Below are positions 31,955 to 62,388 of a stretch of 64,000 nucleotides of DNA, piece by piece; positions within the stretch are counted from its first letter, which is position 1, and the number at the start of each line of letters is the position of its first letter. Position numbers and translations under genes: made by a program. This DNA comes from an uncultured Granulosicoccaceae bacterium. Its GTDB lineage: Bacteria > Pseudomonadota > Gammaproteobacteria > Granulosicoccales > Granulosicoccaceae. Below the pieces are notes generated by a model. It saw only the letters and a list, made by a program, of their open reading frames with translations, made no database searches and was not told the DNA's origin. Where the stretch lies: the NCBI GenBank assembly GCA_938020525.1, contig CALIHW010000062.1, forward strand, positions 1 to 64,000, written 5' to 3'.

Positions 31955-34900
31955 ATGGAATCAAACATAGCGATGTGGCTTGGCCAACTAGGCCTGGACC
32001 AGTACGTCGGAATGTTCGAGGAAAACGATATCGACGTTTCGGTGCTGTCCGAACTCGATCACGATTTGCTGAAAGAAATTGGTGTCACATCAGTCGGGCA
32101 TCGAATAAAAATTCTTAAAGCAAGCCAAGCTGCCTCTTCGCCGCAGCAACCAGCCGCTGATGTTGCTGAAACAAACCACAAGTCCACCCTGCCATCAACT
32201 ACCACAGACAAGTCTGACGACGAAACAATCCGGCAGCCGCCCGACACATCACATTCTGATCGCAGCGACCCCGGGGAACGCAAGCAAATTACAGTCATGT
32301 TCTGCGACATGGTCGGCTCGACAAGACTGTCTACGTTGTACGACCCGGAAGACTACACTGAAATAATAAAAAGTTACCACGCCACCTGCACCGAAGTAAT
32401 CAGTCGGTATGACGGCTATATTGCGCGCTATATGGGTGACGGGATTCTGGCCTACTTCGGCTATCCACTATCTTATGAGAACAATGCAGAGCGAGCGATT
32501 CGTTCAGCACTGGAAGCTGTAAAAGAAATAGCAACTCTTGAGCCACAGCCCAACCTGCGTCTGCAATGCCGGATCGGAATTGCCACCGGGCTGGTGGTGG
32601 TCGGCGAGAAACTGATTGGTTTAGCCAATGAGTCAGTCGCAAGCGGCGATACACCGAATCTGGCAGCCAGACTGCAGTCTATCGCTGAACCTGATCAAAT
32701 AGTTGTTGCCGATAGCACCAGGCGTTTATGCGGCGATCTGTTTCACTGGGCTGAGCTGGGCTCGCATCACTTGAAAGGTTTTGTCGAGCCGATTCCAGCA
32801 TTTGCTGTCTCACCCGTCGATACGATGGAAAGTCGTTTTAGCGCAACGCGTCATCAAATGGCCAGCGGTATTGTCGGACGCGATCCGGAGATCGCGCTAT
32901 TACACGATCGATGGCAAAGTGCCTGCAACGGTGAAGGGCAGATGGTATTGATTAGTGGCGAAGCGGGGATGGGTAAGTCCCGTGTAGCGCACGAGGCGAG
33001 CAGCCGTTTGCAAAGCCAATCATCTAACCTGCAAGCACAAGAACAAACAAAATTTCAGAAGGCAATTCTACAGTGCTCGCCGTATCACATGGAAAGTGCG
33101 CTATATCCAGTAATCGATTACTTCAGTCGAAAATCAGGTCTTTTGCCCAATGACAACGAAACAACCCGGCTGCAAAAATTACTCGCAACTATCAGTGGCG
33201 GCCAGTCGCTCGCGGAATGCGACCTCGACTTGCTGTTGCAACTAAACGCCACGCAATTACCAGACAGTGATCAGGATCTGTTACCGCAGTCTGCCGCACT
33301 GCGCAAACAACGAACGCTGGATCTACTGGTTGCCTGGTTCGTACATTTATGTAAAGAGCGACCATTACTTTTGGTATTCGAAGATGTGCACTGGATGGAT
33401 CCAACTACACACTCTTTTCTTCTGCAGTTGCTCGATTCACTAGCGGATGTTTCCATGTTGATCATTGCAACCGCTCGACCATCACTGACCTATGATTTTG
33501 GCGGACATACCGCTGTTACGCAATTGGCGTTGAATCGACTTGCACGCAGCCAGATGAGTGAGATAGTAGCTTTTGTTACCAACGACAAATCTCTGCCGAA
33601 ACCAGTCACTCGAGATATTCTGGACAAGGCAGATGGTATTCCACTGTATGTTGAAGAACTGACTCGCTACGCACTTGAGTCTGGTCACTTACAGGAGCAC
33701 GAGACCAGTTACAAACTTATCGGGCCAATGCAAAAAATTAATATTCCGGCCACCCTTTATGACTCGTTATCCGCCCGCCTTGATCGCCTCGGAGATGCCA
33801 AGGAAATCGCACAAGTGGGTGCGGTAATCGGCCGGGAATTCAATTTAGGATTATTGCAAGCGGTACTCGGCATCCCCGAAGACAACCTGCTCGGCAGCTT
33901 GATGATACTCATGAACATTGGGCTGTTAGCACGTAAGAGCAATGAAAGCGGGACCAACTTTCTGTTTAAACATGCACTGATGCGTGATGCCGCCTATCAG
34001 GGATTGTTAAACAGTCAACGGCGCCACTGGCATCAACGTATTGCAAACACAATTAAGGAACTTTTCCCAACGATTGTCGACACTCAACCGGAACTACTGG
34101 CACAGCACTACACTGACGCCGGTATGGTTAAAGAAGCGCTTGGTCAATGGCATTTATGCGCCAGCCAGAACCTGGAAAAATTTAACAATCTCGAAGCCGC
34201 CGAGCAAGCCGGACATGGCCTGGAGTTGTTAACCGGCGATGATGCCAGAGAAGAGCACGCAATGGCAGAAATCAATTTACAGCTTGCCGTGGCCTACGCA
34301 CTGCGTGCATCAGAAGGATACTCAGGCGGCGGTTCAGAGGCAGCCTTTACCCGAGCCTATGAGCTTGCCTCAATCCACCAGCAGCTGGACGCCATGAGTG
34401 CTTCAGCAACCGGCCTTTGCTCCGCCTTTCATGTTGGCGGACAGATGAGAAAAGCCTACGATATCGCCCTTCAATTGGGGCAAAACACACAAATACCAGA
34501 ACTGGTTTCTGATTCGAACTTTCTGAAAGGCCAGACCCTCTATTCCCTGGGCGATCCGCGTACAGCACTCAAGCTTTACGAAGAGACTTTAGCTGCGCAC
34601 GATAATTCCGCAGCGTTTAGTGAGTCTGCAAAGCTACGCAACAAATTATTTGATCGCAAATGTGCCAGCTGGCAGTACATGCAACGCTGCAAGCTCTTAC
34701 TGGGATACCCCGATCAGGCAGACGAACTTTGCGAGAAAGCCGTTGCAAGAGCATTCGAACTTGACCAGACCACCGCCAAATGCGCCACACTGATTGGGCA
34801 CTGCCTGCACATGCAACGAACCGCCAGGAACCCATCCAAACAGGCAACATTACTGGAGTCGATAACCGACCAGCATCAAGTCAGATACTGGCGTGCATGG

Positions 34901-35431
34901 GCCAGTTACTGCAACGGCGTAGCTGCCATGTTTAATGGCAGTTATATAGAAGCAGAAAGATTGATTAGTCGCTCGGCGGAAGCGCACCGCGATATGGATT
35001 CGTCTATGGGTATGCCAACCATCCTGGGCACACTGGGAGAAGTCTATCAACACCAGCGCTTATTCGATAAAGCACTTAGCACCTATGATGACGCCATCTC
35101 TGTGGCAGAAGGCACAGAAGAACACTGCGATCTGGCAGAACTCTATCGCCAGCGTGGTGAATGTTTGCTGGCGCAAGGCTCAACAACCGATGATGACGCG
35201 ATAAACGCACTGCAAAAATCACTATCGATCGCACGCGATCAACAGGCACGGTGGTGGGAATTACTCACTGCGACCAGCCTTGCTAACGTCTGCTTAGCGC
35301 AGGGTAACGCACGCGATGCCTATCAAGAGTTACATCCGGTGGTATCGACAATAACCGAGGGCACCAGGCTTCAAGCCCACGAACAGGCGCAACAACTGAT
35401 TGAACGCTGCAACGCAGCTTTAGCCGTTTAG
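31955..35431 (+). CDS. SAM domain - class III adenylate/guanylate cyclase - AAA/STAND ATPase - TPR protein
   Basis: SAM: WLGQLGLDQYVGMFEENDIDVSVL; cyclase: ITVMFCDMVGSTRLS...RYMGDGILAYFGYP; P-loop ISGEAGMGKSRV; VFEDVHWMDP; C-terminal TPR-like region. Confidence 0.93.
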   Translation: MESNIAMWLGQLGLDQYVGMFEENDIDVSVLSELDHDLLKEIGVTSVGHRIKILKASQAASSPQQPAADVAETNHKSTLPSTTTDKSDDETIRQPPDTSHSDRSDPGERKQITVMFCDMVGSTRLSTLYDPEDYTEIIKSYHATCTEVISRYDGYIARYMGDGILAYFGYPLSYENNAERAIRSALEAVKEIATLEPQPNLRLQCRIGIATGLVVVGEKLIGLANESVASGDTPNLAARLQSIAEPDQIVVADSTRRLCGDLFHWAELGSHHLKGFVEPIPAFAVSPVDTMESRFSATRHQMASGIVGRDPEIALLHDRWQSACNGEGQMVLISGEAGMGKSRVAHEASSRLQSQSSNLQAQEQTKFQKAILQCSPYHMESALYPVIDYFSRKSGLLPNDNETTRLQKLLATISGGQSLAECDLDLLLQLNATQLPDSDQDLLPQSAALRKQRTLDLLVAWFVHLCKERPLLLVFEDVHWMDPTTHSFLLQLLDSLADVSMLIIATARPSLTYDFGGHTAVTQLALNRLARSQMSEIVAFVTNDKSLPKPVTRDILDKADGIPLYVEELTRYALESGHLQEHETSYKLIGPMQKINIPATLYDSLSARLDRLGDAKEIAQVGAVIGREFNLGLLQAVLGIPEDNLLGSLMILMNIGLLARKSNESGTNFLFKHALMRDAAYQGLLNSQRRHWHQRIANTIKELFPTIVDTQPELLAQHYTDAGMVKEALGQWHLCASQNLEKFNNLEAAEQAGHGLELLTGDDAREEHAMAEINLQLAVAYALRASEGYSGGGSEAAFTRAYELASIHQQLDAMSASATGLCSAFHVGGQMRKAYDIALQLGQNTQIPELVSDSNFLKGQTLYSLGDPRTALKLYEETLAAHDNSAAFSESAKLRNKLFDRKCASWQYMQRCKLLLGYPDQADELCEKAVARAFELDQTTAKCATLIGHCLHMQRTARNPSKQATLLESITDQHQVRYWRAWASYCNGVAAMFNGSYIEAERLISRSAEAHRDMDSSMGMPTILGTLGEVYQHQRLFDKALSTYDDAISVAEGTEEHCDLAELYRQRGECLLAQGSTTDDDAINALQKSLSIARDQQARWWELLTATSLANVCLAQGNARDAYQELHPVVSTITEGTRLQAHEQAQQLIERCNAALAV

Positions 35432-48360: not shown

Positions 48361-48921
48361 ATGGACAGACGAACTGAACTTTTAAATTGTGCAGAAAACG
48401 TAGCAAGACGCCGCGGCTATGACGGCTTCAGCTACGCTGATCTGGCTGATGAAGTAGGTATCAGAAAAGCCAGTATTCACTATCATTTCCCGTCAAAAGC
48501 GGACCTGGCAGTGGCTTTGATCGAACGCTATGCCAGTACTTTTGGCGATGCACTTGCCGTCATCGATGAAACCTCCGATATCGCATCTGACAGACTGGCG
48601 GCTTATGTGCAAAGTTATCGCAGAGCCTTAAGCGGCGGCGCCAAGCTGTGTTTGTGTGTAGCCTTTGCAATCAGCCGTGACTCATTGTCTGAAGAAGCAT
48701 TGGCCGAGCTGGATGCCTTTCACGCAAGTAGCATTATCTGGTTAACCAAAACCTTTGAACTTGCGAGCAAGGACGGCAGCGTCACTCACACAGGCGATCC
48801 GACAGAAGAAGCAACCGCCTTGTTAGCCACAGTAGAAGGCGCTCAGCTGGTAGCGCGTGCTGCGAATAAAGTCGCAGACTTTGATCAGGCAACCCGGCTG
48901 TTTTTATCTCGACTCGCCTGA
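48361..48921 (+). CDS. TetR family transcriptional regulator
   Basis: ARRRGYDGFSYADLADEVGIRKASIHYHFPSKADLAVALIERY. Confidence 0.93.
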   Translation: MDRRTELLNCAENVARRRGYDGFSYADLADEVGIRKASIHYHFPSKADLAVALIERYASTFGDALAVIDETSDIASDRLAAYVQSYRRALSGGAKLCLCVAFAISRDSLSEEALAELDAFHASSIIWLTKTFELASKDGSVTHTGDPTEEATALLATVEGAQLVARAANKVADFDQATRLFLSRLA

Positions 48922-48975
48922 CAGGTGCGTGTCACTGCAAAACAGCCCGTAGCGTTCGACCATTTATTCAACAAT

Positions 48976-49212
48976 TCACTCCCGGGAGTCTCGCGGCTCA
49001 ATCCGTGCGATCAATCTCGTTGCCATAACCTGAAGATGTTCAGCCAAGCGGTTCGAGCTCTCAGCAAGCCAAACGCCGATCGGCCAGCCGGATTCTTCCG
49101 GATCTGAATCTTCAACCGAAACCAGGCGTATCACCAAGGCACCTCGACTTGCAATCGCCTACTCACCCTCCAGAGCTGACCGGGTAATTTTCGAGAGTTG
49201 TTTGCTTGCCAT
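48976..49212 (-). pseudogene. 79-codon ORF interrupted by an in-frame TAG (stop at 49159-49161)
   Basis: MASKQLSKITRSALEGE*AIASRGALVIRLVSVEDSDPEESGWPIGVWLAESSNRLAEHLQVMATRLIARIEPRDSRE*. Confidence 0.35.
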
Positions 49213-49261
49213 GAGGATATTTGGTACTGAAATTGACGAAGGTGCGGGCCAAGCCCTCCCT

Positions 49262-49318
49262 CTAGCCCGGTTTATTCATGAAAATGACGGCATCCCGCTT
49301 GATCCTTGATTCCACAGC
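49262..49318 (+). mobile_element. Solo end of the same element family as 2584-2767
   Basis: 57 bp identical to 2585-2641 except one base (ggAtt/ggTtt). Confidence 0.75.
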
Positions 49319-49386
49319 GACTTAAACCACAGCAATTCTCAAAACCGGTGATAATATAGAGCTCCAACTCGCACATTTAACGACTA

Positions 49387-52300
49387 ATGCCTATATCGCA
49401 GCGCTGGCAGCTCAATCGCGCTGGCATCACCAATGTCTATCAGTACGAGAATGAGGTACTGACATTTCGCGATGGTCGGTTGCTGTTGCGCGGGGTTAAC
49501 GGCTCCGGTAAGTCAACGGCGATGAACATGCTGTTGCCGTTTCTACTGACCGGCAAAACCCGCGGCATTGATGCAGCCGGCGAACAGACCGGGGTATTAA
49601 AATCCTGGATGCTTTCCGGACGTGATGAAAAGCAACCAGTTGGCTACCTGTGGCTGGAGTTTTCCCGAACAGCACTGACCGACTCTGCCAACAACCAACA
49701 GCAAACCGAGCACCTGTCTTTTGGTTGCGGTATTAAAGCCAATAGAGCCTCGGATACTATTAACACCTGGTGGTTTGTAACCTCCCAGCGACCGGGCATC
49801 GATTTCCAGTTACTCGAACAGCAACTGCCGTTATCTGTTGACTCGCTTCGCAATGCCATTTCTCCCGATCCGGTATTTGCGCAAGACAAGCGTGCCGACT
49901 ATCGCGCTGAAGTAACGCGACGCCTCTACAGTGGCGCACCGATTGATTCATTTCTCGACCTGATCAATGCCGTGCGTAACCCTCGCGTAGGTGACCGAAT
50001 AGATGTCGACTTACCGCAGTATCTAATAGATGCATTACCAAACCTGTCTGAAACTGCGCTGATAGAAGCCGCTCGACCACTGGATGATCTTGACGAACAT
50101 CGACGCAATGTTGCAGATCTTAAAACCACCGCAACCGGCCTCGATGGCATCACTCGCACTTATCGCAATTACGCCGTCACAGAACTACAACACGAGTATC
50201 AACAAGGACGCCAGGTGTTGTCTACGTTACGCAGTAAACGGCGCGATTTAAAAACAGCACTGCAAAACACCACTGACGCAGAGCAGGCAGAGATCGACGC
50301 ACGCGAACATCAGGCAGAATCAGAACAAAAGATAGATCATTTACAAGAGCAGATTCATGCACTGGAACAATCACCAGCGTACACACAGGGTCAACAACTC
50401 GAAGACTTGCGTCGTCATGTTGAAAGTCTTGATCACACTCTGCAGCAAAACGCAAAAAATGTAGATAGGCTGGAATCAAGATTGCCGCAAGCAGCAGGTG
50501 CAGTTACACAATCAGAGCAACGCACAGAACAGCACTGGCGGGAGTTAACAGAAGAACTGACCAAAATAGCCCGCGATGCAGACAATTGTGCACTCAAACA
50601 AAAACCCCCAGGCATAATGCCAGTCGCGCGCCTTGCCATTGAAAATGCGGCATTGCCAAAGCTCAGCGAACCGCTGGAACCCTTCGACAGTAACAGCTGC
50701 AACTCGCAACTCAACGCAGTCAATAGTGCTGCTGCGGCACGCAAGGGCGATATCGAAACCATACGCCAACAGTACCGTGTTGTAGAAAAAGCTGAAGCTA
50801 CCTTTAAAGATGCAGACACAGATCGCAAACAGGCGAGTGATATAGTCGACGATAGCATGCAACGCTTTGAGCTCGGACGCGATAAGCTCAAATCCGTCAG
50901 ACAGCAGTGGGTCAACAGTGTTGCCGCCTGGGTAAAAGAAACAAGAAAGGCAATTGTTAGCGCAGTAACTCCAAGCGGCTTCGACAAGGTTCAAGCCACT
51001 TATCTCAACACATCAGATACCGATAGAGTAGAGCTCCAACAAGCAGAGCTGTCGATCTATCGGCAGGAGCTACACAGCGGAATCAGCACGTCCATCAACG
51101 CCCAACAACGGACTGTTATTACCCTTGAATCACAGCAAAAGGAAGCAGCTGATCGGCACGAACTGGCGCAACAAGAACTGACCCGGTTGCAGGCAATGAC
51201 AGAGCCTGAAGTCCCGTGTCTTAACTGGCAACACCGCAGCGGATCAAGCTTTGCGGATCTGGTCGATTTCAAAGAACACTTATCCGCTGCACAGCGCGCA
51301 GCTATTGAAGCCGCACTTGAAGCCAGTGGCTTGATTTCAGCCACGCTCTCTGCAGAAGGCGCGATGTTGGCTAATGGTGAGTTGATAGCGACCAGTGGCG
51401 ACCTGGCTGACAAGCCGTTAAGCACCCTGCTCAAGGTTACGTTACCGGAAAATTCAACCATTGAACAAAGTAGCGTGCTGAGTTTACTGGAAAGCATCAA
51501 TACAGATTGGAATACAACCCACTCAGCTACCATTACTGACACTGGTAAATTTAAACTTGGTGTACTCACCGGACAACACTCAAAAACGCAGGCAGAGTAT
51601 GTAGGCATCAGTGCGAGACGAGAAAAACTCGAAGCACTTCGTCGTGAAGCCAAAGAACAACTTAAGCACTGCGAAGAAGAACTGACTCATATCAGCGCCA
51701 CTCACAATGCCGCCATCGCTTTTCTGCAACAGCTCAATACACTGCGCGAGACACTACCAACTCTGACTGATGTAGATAGTGCGCAAGCCAGCGCCCTGGC
51801 ACTTGAAGAGCAGCTAGCGGTTGCAAGAGACAGATTACAGGAAAAAGAAAAACGCTTGAGTGATGCGGAAAAAAGTCTGCACGTGGCTGACGAAGAACAC
51901 CAACGTCTTTGCAACTCGCTATCACTGCCAACTAATAAAGCACAATTAAACACACTGGAGCTCACGTTAAACGAGATCACTATTCAGGCAGATAAATCAA
52001 AACGTCTGGCTGTGATTGTGACACAAGCCTGTCACGACTGGACCGCATCAGTTGAACATTTACGTCGTGCCGTGCAGGATCTGGAACTGGCAACAACAAG
52101 ACTTCGTGACAGCCAGTCAGAATACGATACACAGCAGGCGCGACTCAGCACGTTGCAAGCTACACTTGGCACCAGCTATCGTGAGGTTATAGGTGAAATA
52201 AAAGAATATAAAAGCCAGCTGCGGGTATGCAAAGAGGGCTTACCTGCGGCAAAAGAACACACGGAGGTTACTATTCGCGCAGCCGAAACCGCTCGAGGTG

Positions 52301-53565
52301 AAGTTAAAAACTGCACGGCAGCCCAACAACAGGCAGAACTTCATTGCGCAACGCAACATAAACATTTGCATCAAGTGACCGAAGTACCGGGACTACTTAC
52401 CGCCGTAGCACAACAGTCAGAACAACCACAGCCAGACATCACGCACCACAGTGCCGACGCCGACGGGCTGGATTCACTGCTTGCCACACTCAAAACGTTA
52501 CTGCCATCCGAAAATCAAAGTACCCATGCCGATGGTGTGCGAATTTCTTTGCGCCAACGACGCAACCTGCTCGGCGCCGGATGGGATGCCGAAGATCATC
52601 AACCCGATCAGTCACTGCCAATGAGCATCACGGTGACCGGTCCACTCGGTCAAATGCCAGTGGCAGAATCATTGATTACCGTGCAAACACAACTTACGCG
52701 ATTACAGGCATTGTTAACTGAAAAACAAGATCAGGCGTTACGCAATCTCTTGCAGGGCATGATCGCAAGAGAAGTCGCAGAAAAAATGTTTCAGGCAAAG
52801 CGATTGATTGATCGTATGAATGATCGACTCTCAAGCGTTACCACAAGCCATGGCATTGGCGTAAAACTGCGCTGGCGTCAATCACCCGATCTTGAGGACG
52901 CAGTTGCCAACACAGTAGCCATACTCGGCAAGCAGCCAGATCTGCGTACCGAAGAGGAAGAAAGTACCTTGCGTGAGGCACTGGCCAGCGCGTTGGACGA
53001 AGCACGCCAACTGTCACCAGATGCACCTTACAGGCACTTAATTGCCCAGGTATTCGATTATCGTGCATGGCATGAAATGCATGTGTTGCTACGCCGCGGT
53101 GAAGAAACAGCTAAGCGCCTGACCCGTCGAACACCATTGTCAGAAGGCGAGAAAAAACTCGTGTCCTATCTGCCATTGTTTGCAGCGGTTGCCGCCAGTT
53201 GCGATGCTCTGGCAGATACCGGCGAGAGTTCAGTGCCAAGATTTTTATTGCTTGATGATGCTTTTGCCAAAGTCTCTGAAGATAATCATGCAGCCCTCTT
53301 TGGTTTGCTGGTGGACCTTGATCTGGATTTTATCGCCACCAGCGAACGACTGTGGGGAACACATGCAAGCGTGCCCGGTTTAGCCATCACAGAAGTTGTT
53401 CGCGATACCGAGCTCGGTGCCATATTGCTCGAACACAGTCACTGGGATGGCAAAGAACTGCACTTATCTGCACCGATGAATCTGGAACAAGACACATGGA
53501 GCGGTGGTTTACTGCCAGTCGAGCAAACCGGTTACCAGCGGCCAGATTCACCTGCCACAGATTGA
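49387..53565 (+). CDS. jetC: Wadjet type II-like SMC/MukB-like ATPase JetC (TIGR02680-like)
   Basis: FRDGRLLLRGVNGSGKSTAMNMLLPFLLTG (Walker A), long coiled coil, TPLSEGEKKLVSYLPLFAA signature, PRFLLLDDAFAKVSEDN Walker B. Confidence 0.93.
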   Translation: MPISQRWQLNRAGITNVYQYENEVLTFRDGRLLLRGVNGSGKSTAMNMLLPFLLTGKTRGIDAAGEQTGVLKSWMLSGRDEKQPVGYLWLEFSRTALTDSANNQQQTEHLSFGCGIKANRASDTINTWWFVTSQRPGIDFQLLEQQLPLSVDSLRNAISPDPVFAQDKRADYRAEVTRRLYSGAPIDSFLDLINAVRNPRVGDRIDVDLPQYLIDALPNLSETALIEAARPLDDLDEHRRNVADLKTTATGLDGITRTYRNYAVTELQHEYQQGRQVLSTLRSKRRDLKTALQNTTDAEQAEIDAREHQAESEQKIDHLQEQIHALEQSPAYTQGQQLEDLRRHVESLDHTLQQNAKNVDRLESRLPQAAGAVTQSEQRTEQHWRELTEELTKIARDADNCALKQKPPGIMPVARLAIENAALPKLSEPLEPFDSNSCNSQLNAVNSAAAARKGDIETIRQQYRVVEKAEATFKDADTDRKQASDIVDDSMQRFELGRDKLKSVRQQWVNSVAAWVKETRKAIVSAVTPSGFDKVQATYLNTSDTDRVELQQAELSIYRQELHSGISTSINAQQRTVITLESQQKEAADRHELAQQELTRLQAMTEPEVPCLNWQHRSGSSFADLVDFKEHLSAAQRAAIEAALEASGLISATLSAEGAMLANGELIATSGDLADKPLSTLLKVTLPENSTIEQSSVLSLLESINTDWNTTHSATITDTGKFKLGVLTGQHSKTQAEYVGISARREKLEALRREAKEQLKHCEEELTHISATHNAAIAFLQQLNTLRETLPTLTDVDSAQASALALEEQLAVARDRLQEKEKRLSDAEKSLHVADEEHQRLCNSLSLPTNKAQLNTLELTLNEITIQADKSKRLAVIVTQACHDWTASVEHLRRAVQDLELATTRLRDSQSEYDTQQARLSTLQATLGTSYREVIGEIKEYKSQLRVCKEGLPAAKEHTEVTIRAAETARGEVKNCTAAQQQAELHCATQHKHLHQVTEVPGLLTAVAQQSEQPQPDITHHSADADGLDSLLATLKTLLPSENQSTHADGVRISLRQRRNLLGAGWDAEDHQPDQSLPMSITVTGPLGQMPVAESLITVQTQLTRLQALLTEKQDQALRNLLQGMIAREVAEKMFQAKRLIDRMNDRLSSVTTSHGIGVKLRWRQSPDLEDAVANTVAILGKQPDLRTEEEESTLREALASALDEARQLSPDAPYRHLIAQVFDYRAWHEMHVLLRRGEETAKRLTRRTPLSEGEKKLVSYLPLFAAVAASCDALADTGESSVPRFLLLDDAFAKVSEDNHAALFGLLVDLDLDFIATSERLWGTHASVPGLAITEVVRDTELGAILLEHSHWDGKELHLSAPMNLEQDTWSGGLLPVEQTGYQRPDSPATD

Positions 53566-53569
53566 CCAG

Positions 53570-55159
53570 ATGACCGCTGAACCGAACAATAACAAGCTCA
53601 ACAAAAATAGCGTAAGCCAGCGCAACCCACTTCAAGGCGACGACAGTGCAGACGAAGCACGCCTGTTGTTTCGCTACCTTGGTGGTGAAGAATGGCGTGA
53701 GTACCGAGCTATTTTGTCTGTGTTTGCAGACACATTCTTTACCGAGTTTTCTCCTGATGATGTTATCGCGGCGTTGCGAAAAACTGAAGTCGATATCGAT
53801 GACGCGGTGGTGGCCGACCGGCTCGAAAGCCTACGCGGCTGGGGCAATCTAAGCGCTTCAACGTCGGTTGGCAACCCGGCCAGTCTGGATGACTATTACA
53901 AACGTCGGCATCGTTACTTAATTACCCGCGCCGGACAGGAAGTCTACGATATCGTCGAGGGCATACTGCATCGTATCGATGATGTTAGTGATGTACAGGC
54001 AGGAAGACTCAGAGACTTACACCGTGCACTGGAACAACTGATCACACTGTGTGAACGAGATCTGAATACGATAGAAGCAGATTCTATCGTCGATGCCGTG
54101 CGTATGGTGTTTGACCCACATGAATCGTTCAGTACCGAGATCACACAGTTCTTTGCATCGATCAATCAATGGCAAAGCCGCTTTGATCTAGACGCAGACG
54201 AGATCACCTTCTTTGCAGAAGTGCTGGTCGGCTATGTATCTGAACAACTGGTAGAAATAGAACGCATGGCGCGTCCGATTGCCAACAGTTTGCAAATACT
54301 GTCGCCACATATCGATCAGGTTGTACAACACGCACGCTCCGGTCTTGCAGCGCGGGTTGAAGACGCAGGTCTTGCGGAGTCAGTGTCGGTGCGTTATCCA
54401 AAAGGCTCACAACAATCCGACTGGAATCATCTGATGAGATGGTTCGGCGCTGGCATTGATGGATACTCACGCCTTGATGCTCTCACTCGCCAGGCACTGG
54501 CCGCAGTGCGCACACTTACCGGCAACCTGACGCGATTATCACGCGTTGGTGCCGGTGCTGCGTCAAGACGCAGAGACTTTGTAAAGCTTGCACGCTTTAT
54601 TGATGCAGCCGAGGATCAAGATCAGGTACAAGCACTACTGGCTGCGTCTTTTGGACTGTACCCATCACGCCATTTAGGCATGTTGGCGGCAGACGCCGAC
54701 GACCCGGTCGCCACCTCTACTACCTGGCAAAAAGCACCAACAGCGATGGTACCCATCAGCTTACGAGAACGCGGTGAAAGAATTCAACGCGGAAGCTTCA
54801 GTAAAGTGCAAAATCGCGCTGCCGAACGTGAACAACTGCGCATGGCACGCCAACGGGCACGCGATGAAGAAACACTTACAGCGCAAGAGCTGTTAAATGC
54901 TGCCAACACTCACGGACAACTCACCGAACTTAATGTAAGCCCGCGTGCCATGCGACGCTTGCAAATGCTCATGTCGGCTTCTAGTGCGCAGCGCAAACCC
55001 GGCCAGACTCAGCGCAATGCCAAAGATAAAGATCTGCAGTGCACGGTAAAACGTTCACCCGGTCAGCAAGTAAGAATTCACTCAAGCGATGGAACACTCA
55101 CGCTGAACGACGCTGAAGTGTTTATATACTCCACTGACCAGTGGCAACAACATGGCTGA
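53570..55159 (+). CDS. jetA: Wadjet type II-like kleisin JetA (DUF2397/TIGR02677-like)
   Basis: Position in locus; ARLLFRYLGGEEWREYRAILSVFADTFFTEFSPDDVIAAL; ORF opens at 53504, ATG 53570 follows the jetC stop. Confidence 0.85.
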   Translation: MTAEPNNNKLNKNSVSQRNPLQGDDSADEARLLFRYLGGEEWREYRAILSVFADTFFTEFSPDDVIAALRKTEVDIDDAVVADRLESLRGWGNLSASTSVGNPASLDDYYKRRHRYLITRAGQEVYDIVEGILHRIDDVSDVQAGRLRDLHRALEQLITLCERDLNTIEADSIVDAVRMVFDPHESFSTEITQFFASINQWQSRFDLDADEITFFAEVLVGYVSEQLVEIERMARPIANSLQILSPHIDQVVQHARSGLAARVEDAGLAESVSVRYPKGSQQSDWNHLMRWFGAGIDGYSRLDALTRQALAAVRTLTGNLTRLSRVGAGAASRRRDFVKLARFIDAAEDQDQVQALLAASFGLYPSRHLGMLAADADDPVATSTTWQKAPTAMVPISLRERGERIQRGSFSKVQNRAAEREQLRMARQRARDEETLTAQELLNAANTHGQLTELNVSPRAMRRLQMLMSASSAQRKPGQTQRNAKDKDLQCTVKRSPGQQVRIHSSDGTLTLNDAEVFIYSTDQWQQHG

Positions 55160-56306
55160 CAATCAACGCGACCAACTACAACAAGCAGCACGCCACTTAC
55201 TACAGCAGCCACTCACCTGCGCCGAGCACTATCCGGAAATTTTCGCACTGATACGCCGTCATCAACAAACCTTGGATCGCTGGTACACACAACGACTGGG
55301 TTATCGGCTACATGTAGCGAGTTCCACTGCACGACTGTACAAATCCACCGTGATCCCGCATCGCCCTCAATTGCGTGCACCGGTTGGCAGTAAACGTCAG
55401 ATGTCACAACGCGAATCTACCCTATTGGTGTTAATACTGGCGGCAGTAGCGGCAGGCCCGCGTGTAATTAGTCTGCGTGATCTAATCGATGATGTACGCA
55501 GCCAGGCAACCGACGCAGATATCACACTCAGTAACGAACCTATTGAAAGACGCGCACTGATCATCGCACTGAAATGGCTAATCCAAAACGGTATCGTGAA
55601 AGAACTGCATGAGCACATCGACCGCTATGAACACGACGATACAGCCGATGCGATTCTCGAGATCGATCCGGACAGAGTAGGACTCCTGCCGCTCGCCATA
55701 CTAGGTCGCGCAGAAAATACCGAGCAATTACTTGATCGTACAGATCGTCGCACCAATACCAGGCAATGGATGCGTGCGCAATTAACCGAAGACCCCGTGT
55801 TGTATAAAACTGATGTCAGTGACTACGAATGGTCAGAACTGCGGCGCAGACTCGGAGAAGAAATAACCATGCTGGATGAAATGTTCGATCTGCAACTTGA
55901 ATCGCGTGCCGAAGGCATTGCTGCAATTGACCCCGACGGAAGCCTGACCGATCAACCGTTTCCATCCACCGGCACCGTCGGCCACGCGGCGCTACTATTT
56001 ATAGAACATCTCATGCAAACGCCAGATATGAGCTGCACCGAAGATCAGGCCGTGCAAATCATTGAAGAACTGGCAGAGCAGAACCAGAAACACTGGTCTA
56101 AAGCACGAGTGCAGAGTCCGCAGACTTTTTTGCGTGAGGTTGTACATTTACTGATTGACCATCGTTTGCTGGAAAAAGACGACACCCACTACACCTTGTT
56201 ACCCGCCGCCGCACGCTACCGACACAACACCACCATTACCAGCAATGACTCAGTTGATGAATCAGAAGATCAATCCACCCCTATGCAACAGGACACACTC
56301 TGGTAG
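55152..56306 (+). CDS. jetB: Wadjet type II-like JetB (DUF2398/TIGR02678-like)
   Basis: 8-bp overlap with jetA; ARLYKSTVIPHRPQLRAPVGSKRQMSQRESTLLVLILAAVAAGP. Confidence 0.85.
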   Translation: MADNQRDQLQQAARHLLQQPLTCAEHYPEIFALIRRHQQTLDRWYTQRLGYRLHVASSTARLYKSTVIPHRPQLRAPVGSKRQMSQRESTLLVLILAAVAAGPRVISLRDLIDDVRSQATDADITLSNEPIERRALIIALKWLIQNGIVKELHEHIDRYEHDDTADAILEIDPDRVGLLPLAILGRAENTEQLLDRTDRRTNTRQWMRAQLTEDPVLYKTDVSDYEWSELRRRLGEEITMLDEMFDLQLESRAEGIAAIDPDGSLTDQPFPSTGTVGHAALLFIEHLMQTPDMSCTEDQAVQIIEELAEQNQKHWSKARVQSPQTFLREVVHLLIDHRLLEKDDTHYTLLPAAARYRHNTTITSNDSVDESEDQSTPMQQDTLW

Positions 56307-56309
56307 CTT

Positions 56310-57530
56310 ATGTCTATACCGGATTCACTGTCACACGATGCACTAGCGCCACTTTGGGAAAAGATACGTCAACGGCTGGATAAGTACGGGCCAGACAGGC
56401 GCGGTACGATAAAACTGCCGCGCCTAACAGACAACGCCGCACTGATATTGTCCTCTTTGTTAGATAAAAAACTTACCTCTCGTATTAACCTGGACGAGCT
56501 CGAAGTATCGTTAACAGCAAAAGGCGTCGGCTCCGACCTTACAACAGCACTGGATATCCTCGGCTATCCCGCAAGTGCCAGCCGTGAAGCATTTCGTGCC
56601 GCCAACCTGCGTCGAGCCGATGCACGAACAGCGGTTGATAATGCCATCACCAGCTGGCCCGAAACATGGTGCGAAGAATGGGTAGAATGGTTGTTCCGCT
56701 CAGGCATCATGGCAAACACCAACAATCACTCTGCCCTGCAACTAGTGGAACAAGTTCGCAGAGTACTTGATTATCTAAAAGATACACAACACCAGCAAAT
56801 CGCCCGCAATGACCTGGCAGTAAAGCTATTCGGTTCATCACACGCCCTTGACGACAGCACCGCCATAGAACGCGCTGCACGCAGAACCCTATGGCACAAG
56901 ATTAACAAAACTCCCGACTATCACGAGAGACGCGCTGTCTGGAGTGCTGCAGGCATCACCACAGACCGGGTCTCGACACCGGTTTTGAGCTGGAGCTTAA
57001 AACTTCACCCACACACTGCACTGGGTAAACTTTGTAACGCAGCAAACGAGGCAGGCATACCACTGCACTTAAGCACACTTGCACTGGAGCAAAATGAAAT
57101 TCGCGGTATCGAGATACAAAAACCCATATTGGTGGTAGAAAACCCCAGATTAGTAGAAGCTGCAGCCGAACGCCAAGTCAATCAAACTGTAATCACCACC
57201 AACGGCAATCCATCCAATGTGGTGATCATACTGATTAAAGCGCTGCTACAGCAAAACATCGAAATACTCTATCACGGCGACTTTGATGCCGCAGGCATCG
57301 CTATCTGCAAGCGCATGTTTACCATGGGTTGCAAACCCTGGCTAATGAGTGCTGAAAATTATATCAACGCACTTGAAAAGGCCAGTCGGCTCAAGCTGAC
57401 ACTACCGCTTGAAGATTCTGCCTATGGAGATACACCGTGGGACAATGAACTGCAAACACAACTGACAAAACACAAACTTGTGATTCACGAAGAATTGTTG
57501 ATAGACGAGATACTCGACACCCGTTTCTAA
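56310..57530 (+). CDS. jetD: Wadjet type II-like nuclease JetD (DUF3323 + DUF2399 Toprim-like, TIGR02679-like)
   Basis: ILVVENPRLVEAA...IEILYHGDFDAAGIAICKRM (Toprim E and DxD-type motifs). Confidence 0.88.
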   Translation: MSIPDSLSHDALAPLWEKIRQRLDKYGPDRRGTIKLPRLTDNAALILSSLLDKKLTSRINLDELEVSLTAKGVGSDLTTALDILGYPASASREAFRAANLRRADARTAVDNAITSWPETWCEEWVEWLFRSGIMANTNNHSALQLVEQVRRVLDYLKDTQHQQIARNDLAVKLFGSSHALDDSTAIERAARRTLWHKINKTPDYHERRAVWSAAGITTDRVSTPVLSWSLKLHPHTALGKLCNAANEAGIPLHLSTLALEQNEIRGIEIQKPILVVENPRLVEAAAERQVNQTVITTNGNPSNVVIILIKALLQQNIEILYHGDFDAAGIAICKRMFTMGCKPWLMSAENYINALEKASRLKLTLPLEDSAYGDTPWDNELQTQLTKHKLVIHEELLIDEILDTRF

Positions 57531-59412: not shown

Positions 59413-62388
59413 ATGGCTGCAGAAAAACGCCGACTAACGATTCTTAACTGCGATATGGTCAGTTCGACGGTGCTCGCCGAGGAACTCGACCCCGAAGTTT
59501 TCGAAGTCGTGATGCAGTCTTTTATCGATCTGTCTGTCAAGATAATTGAACGCAATAACGGAGTATTTGCACTCAATACTGGTGATGGGTACGAAGCATA
59601 CTTTTACCCGGGAACCGGCTCACCGGGGGCCGTATACGCGATTGAATGTGGCCTTGATCTTCAACGCTCACTGAAGACTCGGAATGCAAATTCGGAACAT
59701 CCGCTTTCGGTGCGTGTTGGAATCACTACTGGCCAGGTGGTGCTTAGCCCACATAAGCTGAGCTCAAATGTCGAAGTTGATATCGCCTTTGGAAAGCCGG
59801 CACATTTGGCCGCTCGTGTGCAGTCTGCGGCACAGGCAGGCTCGGTTTATGTCGATGATGCCACCAAAGAAAGTGCGTCATCTTATTTTAATTTTCACAA
59901 TGCCGGAGATCAAATACTTAAGGGAATCAATCTGCCGGTAACTCTCTGGCGAGTTGATAGCCAGCGCCAGTCTGAATCCCGTTTTCAAGCTAGTGTTTCT
60001 TCCCTTTCACCACTGGTTGGCAGAACTGTAGAGATCAGTCAACTGAGGTTGTGCTGGCAGAACGTCAATGCTGGTAACGGCGAAGCAGTCGTTGTTGTGG
60101 GTGAGCCGGGCATGGGTAAATCGCGCCTGGTTTACGAAGTTTGTAACCTCATTGAACAGCCGCCCATCGTATTACAGTGTCTGGAAAATCACGAAAATAC
60201 CCCTCTCAGACCATGGACGAGATTGTTTGAGTCCATATCTGAAATCAGTCCTCGTGAGTCAGTTGCACAACGACGCGAAAAACTTGCCGCCACGTTGCGC
60301 ACTGTTTTGCCACTGAAGCCTGAGCAGCAACAATCAATGCTGTCACTGATGTTGCAGTCGGCTGAGACAAGCACTGATGAAAACGTTTCTCCGAAACAAA
60401 AGCTTGAAGGCTTGTGCAACGCGATCGTTGATGCGGTACTGCAGCTCTCGCGAAAACAAGCACAACTGATCGTGATTGAAGACCTGCACTGGATTGATCC
60501 GACTTCGCAAATGCTTCTGGAAACTTTGCTCGAACAAATAAATGCTGAACGGGTATTTATATTACTGACCAGTCGACCCGAGAAGCGCGAATACATTGAG
60601 CAGAAAAATCTTCATCACATTCACCTGACAAGGTTAACTCATAGCGAAACCGTACAACTGGCCATGTTTGAGCTGGAGGATAATGAATCTGATCGCGTCG
60701 AAGAGATTGTGCGATGGGCAGATGGCGTGCCGCTTTTTGTTGAAGAAATTGTAAAAAGCTCGATCACATCAGGCGATAGTGTTGCACTTAACATTAACCC
60801 AGGTCAGCACAGTGAGTTTCGCCCCGATGTGCCCAACTCATTGCAAGATCCCCTGCTCGCGCGCCTGGACCGACTCGGTACTGCGAAACAGCTGGCTCAG
60901 GTGGCTGCTGTGATTGGCCGTGAGTTTGACGTGGAAACACTCAGCTTACTGAAAGCTTCAGCGCCGGATCAAATTCGCAGCGATTTGAATCGTCTTGTCG
61001 ACGCAGGTATTTTGGTAACCCTGGACGCGAGCGATGAAAACTTCACATTCAAACACGCTTTGATTCAAGATGTTGTTTATAAAAATCTGCTTAGTCGCGA
61101 TGCAAAAAAGCTGCATAAACGATTGGCCAATATCTATCAGGAAGAATTCGGTGATATTCAAAGCTCTCGGCCAGAAGTGATCGCACATCATTTCAGCATG
61201 GCTGGCGAGTGGCAGCTTGCATCCAGACTGTGGCTAGAGGCTGGAATAGCAGCGCGCGATACCGGATCAAGCCTGGAAGCGAAAGGCCGTCTTGAGCGAG
61301 GTCTTGAAGCGGCAAACCAACTTAAAGACAAACAAGAGGCACAAAGCCTACAGATACAAATTCAACTGATTCTCGGTCAAGTGATTAGCGCGCACTACGG
61401 ACCAATCAATCAAGAGGGACATCGTGCTTTTGAAAATGTCGTTGAACTTGCCGAAGCTCTGGGTGACGAGGTCAGCGTGGTGTCAGCGCAAACCTACCTG
61501 GTGTGGTTGCATTTCGATTCAGGTGAGTTTGAAGTGACATTGTCTGCCGCTGCAAAGCTGACCGAATATGCGAAGACAGTAGGTAATCAACAAGCAGCGG
61601 CACTGGGTTTACTCGGTGCAGGTATGTGTCAGTTTGCAATGGGAGACTTTGTTCAGGCCAAAGTATCTCTACAAGAATCACTCAGCTATCTTGAACATAA
61701 ATTCGAACATGTGGAAGGCTACCCCGGCAAAGCCTATACCTACCTGGGGTTCGTTAATCATATTCAGGGGGATGCCAACAGCGCATTTTCACTCTGCAAA
61801 CACTCGATAGAAATCAGTGAAGATAAAGCCGCCTACGATCTTGCAGCGGCGCTCGGAAATTCTTTGTATTTGAATGTGCTCCAGCATGATCTGAAAACCA
61901 TGGAGGCAACCTCTTCAAGGCTGATGCAACTGGCGGATAAAACCGGTTTTATCAAATGGTATTACCATGGTGCTTTTTTCTTTGGCAGTGTACGGGCCGC
62001 GCAAGCGGATAGCGCTGGCCTTAAGATGATGCGAGAAGCCATTGATCGCTTCGAACAAGCAGAGGAAACCGTTGAGCTTACTATTTTTTACGGGTTGCTT
62101 GCTGACCGCTATTTAATGCATGACGAATATAATGAGGCAATCCTCTGGGTCAACAAAGGCCTGAATCTAGTGAGTACCTATGGCGAGTGCTTTGTCGAGG
62201 CACCGTTGCTTAGGCTGAAAGCCCGGTGCCTTACCCAGGCTCAGCCCGAGAAGACGACTGAGATAGACCAACTCAACCAACGGGCGGATGCCGTCGCGGC
62301 TTCGCAAAGTGCTGTGATTTGGCAAGCTAACCAAAAAAACAGGAAAGAGAGCAACGATATAGTTAAAATACCGGCAAGGTTTCCATAG
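59413..62388 (+). CDS. Class III cyclase - AAA/STAND ATPase - TPR protein (no SAM domain)
   Basis: LTILNCDMVSSTVLAEEL...LNTGDGYEAYF; VVGEPGMGKSRLVYEV; VIEDLHWIDPTSQ; TPR-like C-terminus. Confidence 0.92.
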   Translation: MAAEKRRLTILNCDMVSSTVLAEELDPEVFEVVMQSFIDLSVKIIERNNGVFALNTGDGYEAYFYPGTGSPGAVYAIECGLDLQRSLKTRNANSEHPLSVRVGITTGQVVLSPHKLSSNVEVDIAFGKPAHLAARVQSAAQAGSVYVDDATKESASSYFNFHNAGDQILKGINLPVTLWRVDSQRQSESRFQASVSSLSPLVGRTVEISQLRLCWQNVNAGNGEAVVVVGEPGMGKSRLVYEVCNLIEQPPIVLQCLENHENTPLRPWTRLFESISEISPRESVAQRREKLAATLRTVLPLKPEQQQSMLSLMLQSAETSTDENVSPKQKLEGLCNAIVDAVLQLSRKQAQLIVIEDLHWIDPTSQMLLETLLEQINAERVFILLTSRPEKREYIEQKNLHHIHLTRLTHSETVQLAMFELEDNESDRVEEIVRWADGVPLFVEEIVKSSITSGDSVALNINPGQHSEFRPDVPNSLQDPLLARLDRLGTAKQLAQVAAVIGREFDVETLSLLKASAPDQIRSDLNRLVDAGILVTLDASDENFTFKHALIQDVVYKNLLSRDAKKLHKRLANIYQEEFGDIQSSRPEVIAHHFSMAGEWQLASRLWLEAGIAARDTGSSLEAKGRLERGLEAANQLKDKQEAQSLQIQIQLILGQVISAHYGPINQEGHRAFENVVELAEALGDEVSVVSAQTYLVWLHFDSGEFEVTLSAAAKLTEYAKTVGNQQAAALGLLGAGMCQFAMGDFVQAKVSLQESLSYLEHKFEHVEGYPGKAYTYLGFVNHIQGDANSAFSLCKHSIEISEDKAAYDLAAALGNSLYLNVLQHDLKTMEATSSRLMQLADKTGFIKWYYHGAFFFGSVRAAQADSAGLKMMREAIDRFEQAEETVELTIFYGLLADRYLMHDEYNEAILWVNKGLNLVSTYGECFVEAPLLRLKARCLTQAQPEKTTEIDQLNQRADAVAASQSAVIWQANQKNRKESNDIVKIPARFP

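What the first reader, a model, noticed from the sequence alone, without database searches (positions are those of the whole stretch)
49387..57530. Complete type II Wadjet-like locus with gene order C-A-B-D
Seen: four tightly packed co-directional genes (gaps/overlaps from +3 to -8 bp) encoding an SMC-like ATPase with intact Walker A, signature and Walker B, two accessory proteins, and a Toprim-like protein with E and DxD-type motifs. Established: TIGR02677/02678/02679/02680 form a conserved four-gene neighbourhood equated with JetA/B/D/C of type II Wadjet, an anti-plasmid SMC system. The order I recall for Jet operons is A-B-C-D; here the ATPase gene is first. The order may affect stoichiometry or mark a sublineage.
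Basis: partly seen in the sequence, partly recalled or inferred. Interest (0 to 1): 0.75.

Follow-up and report, generated by a model that had tools for sequence, protein, structure and literature searches.

The report
Type II Wadjet with reordered genes
These four genes encode a known kind of bacterial machine that recognises and cuts plasmids; the unusual thing is the gene order (motor gene first), which arose once and is now shared by a small family of these systems found in two distantly related groups of bacteria.

Summary
Window 49387-57530 carries four tightly packed genes in the order jetC-jetA-jetB-jetD. All four match type II Wadjet profiles (PADLOC JetC2/A2/B2/D2; TIGR02680/02677/02678 above cut-off, TIGR02679 below it). 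Profiles of C, A and B match the solved Neobacillus vireti type II Wadjet complex (9QE0/9QE1). The JetD model resembles the MksG nuclease, topoisomerase VI-A and Spo11, with invariant E and DxD. The order is a real departure: annotated plasmid loci and an even draw of Actinomycetota are A-B-C-D. On a tree of 85 loci, C-A-B(-D) needs one change (support 100), so it marks one sublineage. The host is a gammaproteobacterium, but outside its own family the nearest relatives are Acidimicrobiia (Actinomycetota), which points to cross-phylum transfer. One correction: JetC's Walker B is not wholly standard. The catalytic Glu is Asp (LLLDDAF) here and in 34 of 84 type II JetC proteins, always paired with a nearby Lys. 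Function is most likely ordinary Wadjet plasmid restriction; nothing was tested experimentally. A gene-order variant of a known system, of modest interest.

The parts
49387..53565 (+). jetC (type II): SMC-like ATPase motor subunit, 1392 aa; Walker A GVNGSGKS, signature LSEGEKKL, Walker B FLLLDDAF with Asp at residue 1291 where Glu is usual
   Evidence: PADLOC JetC2 4.9e-281; TIGR02680 673 bits over cut-off 463; profile hits 9QE0 JetC 3.6e-166; motifs
53570..55159 (+). jetA (type II): kleisin-like subunit, DUF2397, 529 aa from ATG 53570
   Evidence: PADLOC JetA2 2.2e-129; TIGR02677 over cut-off; PF09660 1.7e-96; profile hits 9QE0 JetA 2.3e-120; model matches 9QE0_E and MukF
55152..56306 (+). 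jetB (type II): KITE-like subunit, DUF2398, 384 aa
   Evidence: PADLOC JetB2 9.6e-88; TIGR02678 over cut-off; PF09661 8.9e-73; profile hits 9QE0 JetB 1.6e-129
56310..57530 (+). jetD (type II): Toprim nuclease, DUF3323 + DUF2399, 406 aa; E277, D324, D326 invariant
   Evidence: PADLOC JetD2 3.1e-84; PF09664 7.7e-29; TIGR02679 158 bits (below cut-off 196); model (pLDDT 94) matches MksG nuclease 8B7F, Topo VI-A, Spo11
48925..49386 (.). left border zone: conserved TetR gene ends at 48921, jet operon starts at 49387; a same-genus genome keeps the TetR side without jet genes
   Evidence: L136: TetR 90% aa identity, nothing homologous to the jet genes; no DUF2397 in G401

Best explanation
A complete type II Wadjet (JetABCD) anti-plasmid system. 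JetC dimers with JetA and JetB form an SMC motor that should extrude small circular DNA using ATP. JetD, a Toprim nuclease of the MksG/Topo VI-A/Spo11 kind, should cut the DNA once extrusion is complete. The operon belongs to a single-origin sublineage in which the order A-B-C-D became C-A-B-D. It is shared by Acidimicrobiia and one gammaproteobacterial family and was probably moved between them horizontally. Shown here: family membership, motifs, fold, order and its single origin. Inferred: the activity, which rests on characterised homologues, and the horizontal transfer (direction unknown).
For: Profile matches of all four proteins. JetC, JetA and JetB profiles each hit the N. vireti type II complex 9QE0/9QE1 with strong scores; that complex cleaves circular DNA (PMC12647877). 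JetD fold and invariant catalytic residues. Order survey and trees. Host is a gammaproteobacterium by rpoB, while the nearest jet relatives outside its family are Acidimicrobiaceae. Patchy presence: DUF2397 in 7 of 48 family genomes, and flanks not shared between family members that carry it.
Against: TIGR02679 match is below its curated cut-off. The Walker B catalytic Glu is Asp, which could slow or abolish hydrolysis, although it is conserved across 34 JetC proteins. The genome is a MAG and nothing was assayed.
Confidence: 0.88

Rival explanations
1. The system is type II Wadjet, but the C-first order was selected because JetC is needed in excess (nvJET is C2:B1:A1 per monomer), so the order tunes subunit supply.
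For: Reported type II stoichiometry JetC2JetB1JetA1 (PMC12647877); C first in every complete member of the clade.
Against: All other type II lineages, presumably with the same stoichiometry, keep C after A and B. A single rearrangement inherited by descent explains the pattern without selection.
Confidence: 0.15
2. The operon is a catalytically weakened or decayed Wadjet, because the Walker B Glu has become Asp.
For: D1291 in place of Glu; Glu is the usual general base in SMC/ABC ATPases (own knowledge).
Against: The same Asp is fixed in 34 of 84 JetC-II proteins across many genera with mostly intact reading frames, coupled to a Lys four residues on; the Toprim residues are also intact.
Confidence: 0.06
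3. It is a chromosome-organising SMC (MukBEF/MksBEF-like) and not a defence system.
For: JetA model also matches MukF.
Against: Patchy distribution (7 of 48 family genomes), variable surroundings, presence of JetD, and far stronger matches to the type II Wadjet families than to Muk/Mks.
Confidence: 0.04

Closest known systems
Neobacillus vireti type II Wadjet (nvJET; PDB 9QE0, 9QE1)
   Same: JetC, JetA and JetB homologous over nearly full length; same four components
   Different: Bacillota JetC proteins in the survey carry the usual Glu in Walker B and A-B-C-D order; the order of the nvJET operon itself was not checked
Actinobacterial and proteobacterial type II Wadjet loci (TIGR02677/78/80/79; Streptomyces, Pseudonocardia, Cupriavidus plasmids)
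   Same: Same four families, one tight operon
   Different: Order A-B-C-D; about 21-28% JetC identity to the window
Acidimicrobiaceae C-A-B-D loci (L045, L047) and same-family loci (L038, L039, L040, L179)
   Same: Same order, same clade, same LLLDDAF-type Walker B; up to 62% identity over concatenated A+B+C
   Different: Flanking genes are not shared (L179 flanks not compared)
Type I Wadjet / MksBEFG
   Same: Same architecture of SMC, kleisin, KITE and Toprim nuclease; JetD fold closest to C. glutamicum MksG 8B7F
   Different: Only weak profile scores to type I models

Membership tests
Type II Wadjet | JetC of TIGR02680 / JetC2 family with Walker A, signature and Walker B | tested here: met
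   TIGR02680 673 bits, cut-off 463; motifs present, Walker B Glu replaced by Asp as in 33 other members
Type II Wadjet | JetA of DUF2397 / TIGR02677 | tested here: met
   207.6 bits, cut-off 165.9; PF09660 324 bits
Type II Wadjet | JetB of DUF2398 / TIGR02678 | tested here: met
   140.9 bits, cut-off 124.7; PF09661 246 bits
Type II Wadjet | JetD of DUF3323+DUF2399 with Toprim E and DxD | tested here: met
   PF09664 and PF11796 above cut-off; PADLOC JetD2 3.1e-84; E277/D324/D326 invariant; fold
Type II Wadjet | JetD over the curated cut-off of TIGR02679 | tested here: not met
   158 bits against 196; full-length match all the same (residues 31-403), and Pfam/PADLOC JetD models are met, so this is read as divergence within the family
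Type II Wadjet | All four genes in one operon | tested here: met
   Junctions +4, -8, +3; co-transcription not tested
Type II Wadjet | Usual gene order A-B-C-D (typical, not defining) | tested here: not met
   C-A-B-D here; A-B-C-D in 20 of 21 four-gene loci of an even draw of Actinomycetota
Type II Wadjet | Restricts small circular plasmids | not testable with these tools
   needs transformation and cleavage assays

The most novel reading that the evidence does not exclude
The window's JetC belongs to a large branch of natural SMC motors that use Asp instead of Glu as the Walker B general base, coupled to a Lys in the following loop. If active, this branch may hydrolyse ATP with altered kinetics, which would give a slower or more tightly gated loop-extruding plasmid sensor.
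Probability: 0.25. Interest if true: 0.5.

Novelty: new variant of a known kind. Interest (0 to 1): 0.33.

Why it matters
Gene order in Wadjet operons can serve as a lineage marker: C-A-B-D arose once, has been kept in systems that have diverged widely in sequence, and is found in two phyla. It gives a natural test of whether order affects SMC complex assembly. The shared Glu-to-Asp change in Walker B gives a natural test of how an SMC motor works without the canonical catalytic residue.

Tried and rejected
Single-sequence PDB searches with JetD and JetB found nothing; an alignment profile found JetB, and JetD was placed only by fold. TIGR02680 hits in other genomes of the phylum were nearly all partial matches well under the cut-off, most of them at the C-terminal Walker B end, and were not counted as Wadjet. 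16S was absent from the MAG, so rpoB was used for the host. The ~428-aa gene upstream of jetA in Nocardia was considered as a JetD replacement and set aside: it has no Pfam or PADLOC defence match, and by eye its N-terminal region looks like a helix-turn-helix regulator. An all-against-all neighbour search timed out and was repeated on a smaller set. No paper in the held library discusses type II loci under these family names; Doron 2018 and the nvJET structure paper were not read, so prior notice of C-A-B-D there is not excluded. Promoter and terminator scans gave no more hits than shuffled sequence.

Full report
What is there. The four ORFs are at the stated coordinates, on the + strand and tightly packed. 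The most likely jetA start is ATG 53570, four bases after the jetC stop. Junctions are +4, -8 and +3, and similar short junctions recur in related loci.

What they are. PADLOC, NCBIfam and Pfam agree on type II Wadjet: JetC2/TIGR02680, JetA2/TIGR02677/DUF2397, JetB2/TIGR02678/DUF2398, JetD2/DUF3323+DUF2399. One caveat is that TIGR02679 scores 158 bits against a cut-off of 196. Profiles built from homologues hit the solved N. vireti type II complex for JetC (3.6e-166), JetA (2.3e-120) and JetB (1.6e-129). The JetD model (mean pLDDT 94) has the C. glutamicum MksG nuclease 8B7F as its best structural match, then topoisomerase VI-A and Spo11. TM-scores are low (0.3-0.5), as would be expected if the domains are arranged differently, but the match probability is 1.00. 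E277, N278, G299, D324, D326 and G329 are invariant in 41 JetD proteins. The JetA model matches 9QE0_E first and MukF/MukBEF chains next.

Gene order. Six annotated plasmid loci (Streptomyces, Cupriavidus, Pseudonocardia) are A-B-C-D. A scan of genome contigs with a JetC alignment gave 80 loci. With profiles of all four proteins, the loci held at that point that have all four genes were 51 A-B-C-D, 10 C-A-B-D and 4 D-A-B-C; this set is biased towards the window because the window protein was the confirming query. In a less biased even draw of 399 genomes from the phylum of a Nocardia genome (Actinomycetota), fetched loci with all four genes were 20 A-B-C-D, one with jetD on the opposite strand upstream of A-B-C, and none C-A-B-D. 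In the window's own family, DUF2397 occurs in 7 of 48 genomes. Five of these loci are C-A-B-D, one is C-A cut by a contig end, and one (G402, same genus) is A-B-C, so a second, different type II locus has entered the same genus.

One origin. On a tree of concatenated A, B and C from 85 loci, C-A-B against the rest needs one change, with support 100 (shuffled mean 12.4). A separate JetD tree gives the same single change. The clade holds the window's family, Acidimicrobiia, two MAGs labelled Actinomycetes, one labelled Proteobacteria, one unclassified, and, as sister, Actinomycetospora with C-A-B and no jetD. FastTree was used; the tree has one very long branch (L032), and the root is a midpoint.

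Host and movement. The MAG has no 16S match. Its rpoB region is about 69-72% identical to gammaproteobacterial genes and about 66% to Sinorhizobium, so the host is a gammaproteobacterium. The nearest jet relatives outside its family are Acidimicrobiaceae, which implies transfer between phyla; the direction is not shown. The contig is not foreign contamination: G401, same genus, has the amine oxidase and TetR genes of the left flank at 79% and 90% amino-acid identity, with no jet genes after the TetR. Flanking genes are not shared between the window, L038, L039 and L040. Together these point to a mobile or repeatedly inserted operon, though no recombinase or repeat boundary was identified.

The Asp of Walker B is there, but the following residue, the usual catalytic Glu, is Asp (D1291, FLLLDDAFAKVSE). 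The same Asp occurs in 34 of 84 JetC proteins, in all C-A-B(-D) members and in their sister actinobacterial lineages. All 34 have Lys four residues on, where 48 of 50 Glu-type proteins have Gly. The tree needs two changes, the second due to the long-branch row L032. The trait is therefore old and shared, not a defect of this locus. Its effect on the motor is unknown.

How it most likely works. By homology to nvJET, which cleaves circular DNA (PMC12647877), and to type I Wadjet (PMC10586767), JetABC should extrude small circular DNA with ATP, and JetD should cut it when extrusion is complete. This is inference; no activity was measured.

Verdict. An ordinary type II Wadjet system by composition and fold, in a rare gene order that marks one sublineage. 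Whether the order matters for function is open.

Noticed in passing
L091:14390-16684, L096:14487-16646, L104:14507-16636, L074:14485-16785 (minus strand): Actinobacterial jetA-B-C loci without an adjacent jetD. In L091, L096 and L104 the jetA is shortened (the L091 protein covers only the C-terminal part of the JetA profile) and a ~710-765 aa SMC/AAA ATPase (best PADLOC match mad3, then LmuB) follows jetC; L074 has a full-length jetA and the homologous ATPase ORF on the opposite strand. Possibly a Wadjet derivative with a different partner.
   Followed up: partly
L052, L054, L098 (Actinomycetospora): Sister group of the window's clade: C-A-B order with no jetD, and no DUF2399 found in any of the three genomes.
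   Followed up: partly
L090:5603-6886, L112:5496-6779, L114:2125-3405: Nocardia jetA-B-C loci without adjacent jetD; a 77-81% conserved ~428-aa gene lies just upstream of jetA, with no Pfam or PADLOC defence family; probably a regulator.
   Followed up: partly
L065, L068, L076, L115: A further gene order, D-A-B-C, in Labedaea, Nocardia seriolae, Allokutzneria and Lentzea.
   Followed up: partly
window 31955-35431 and 59413-62388: Two large adenylate/guanylate cyclase + AAA ATPase proteins (the first also with SAM and TPR domains), the second downstream of the jet operon; the second matches TOMM kinase/cyclase below its cut-off.
   Followed up: no
G402:C8 (L178): Same-genus genome with a different, A-B-C ordered type II locus cut by the contig end.
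   Followed up: partly
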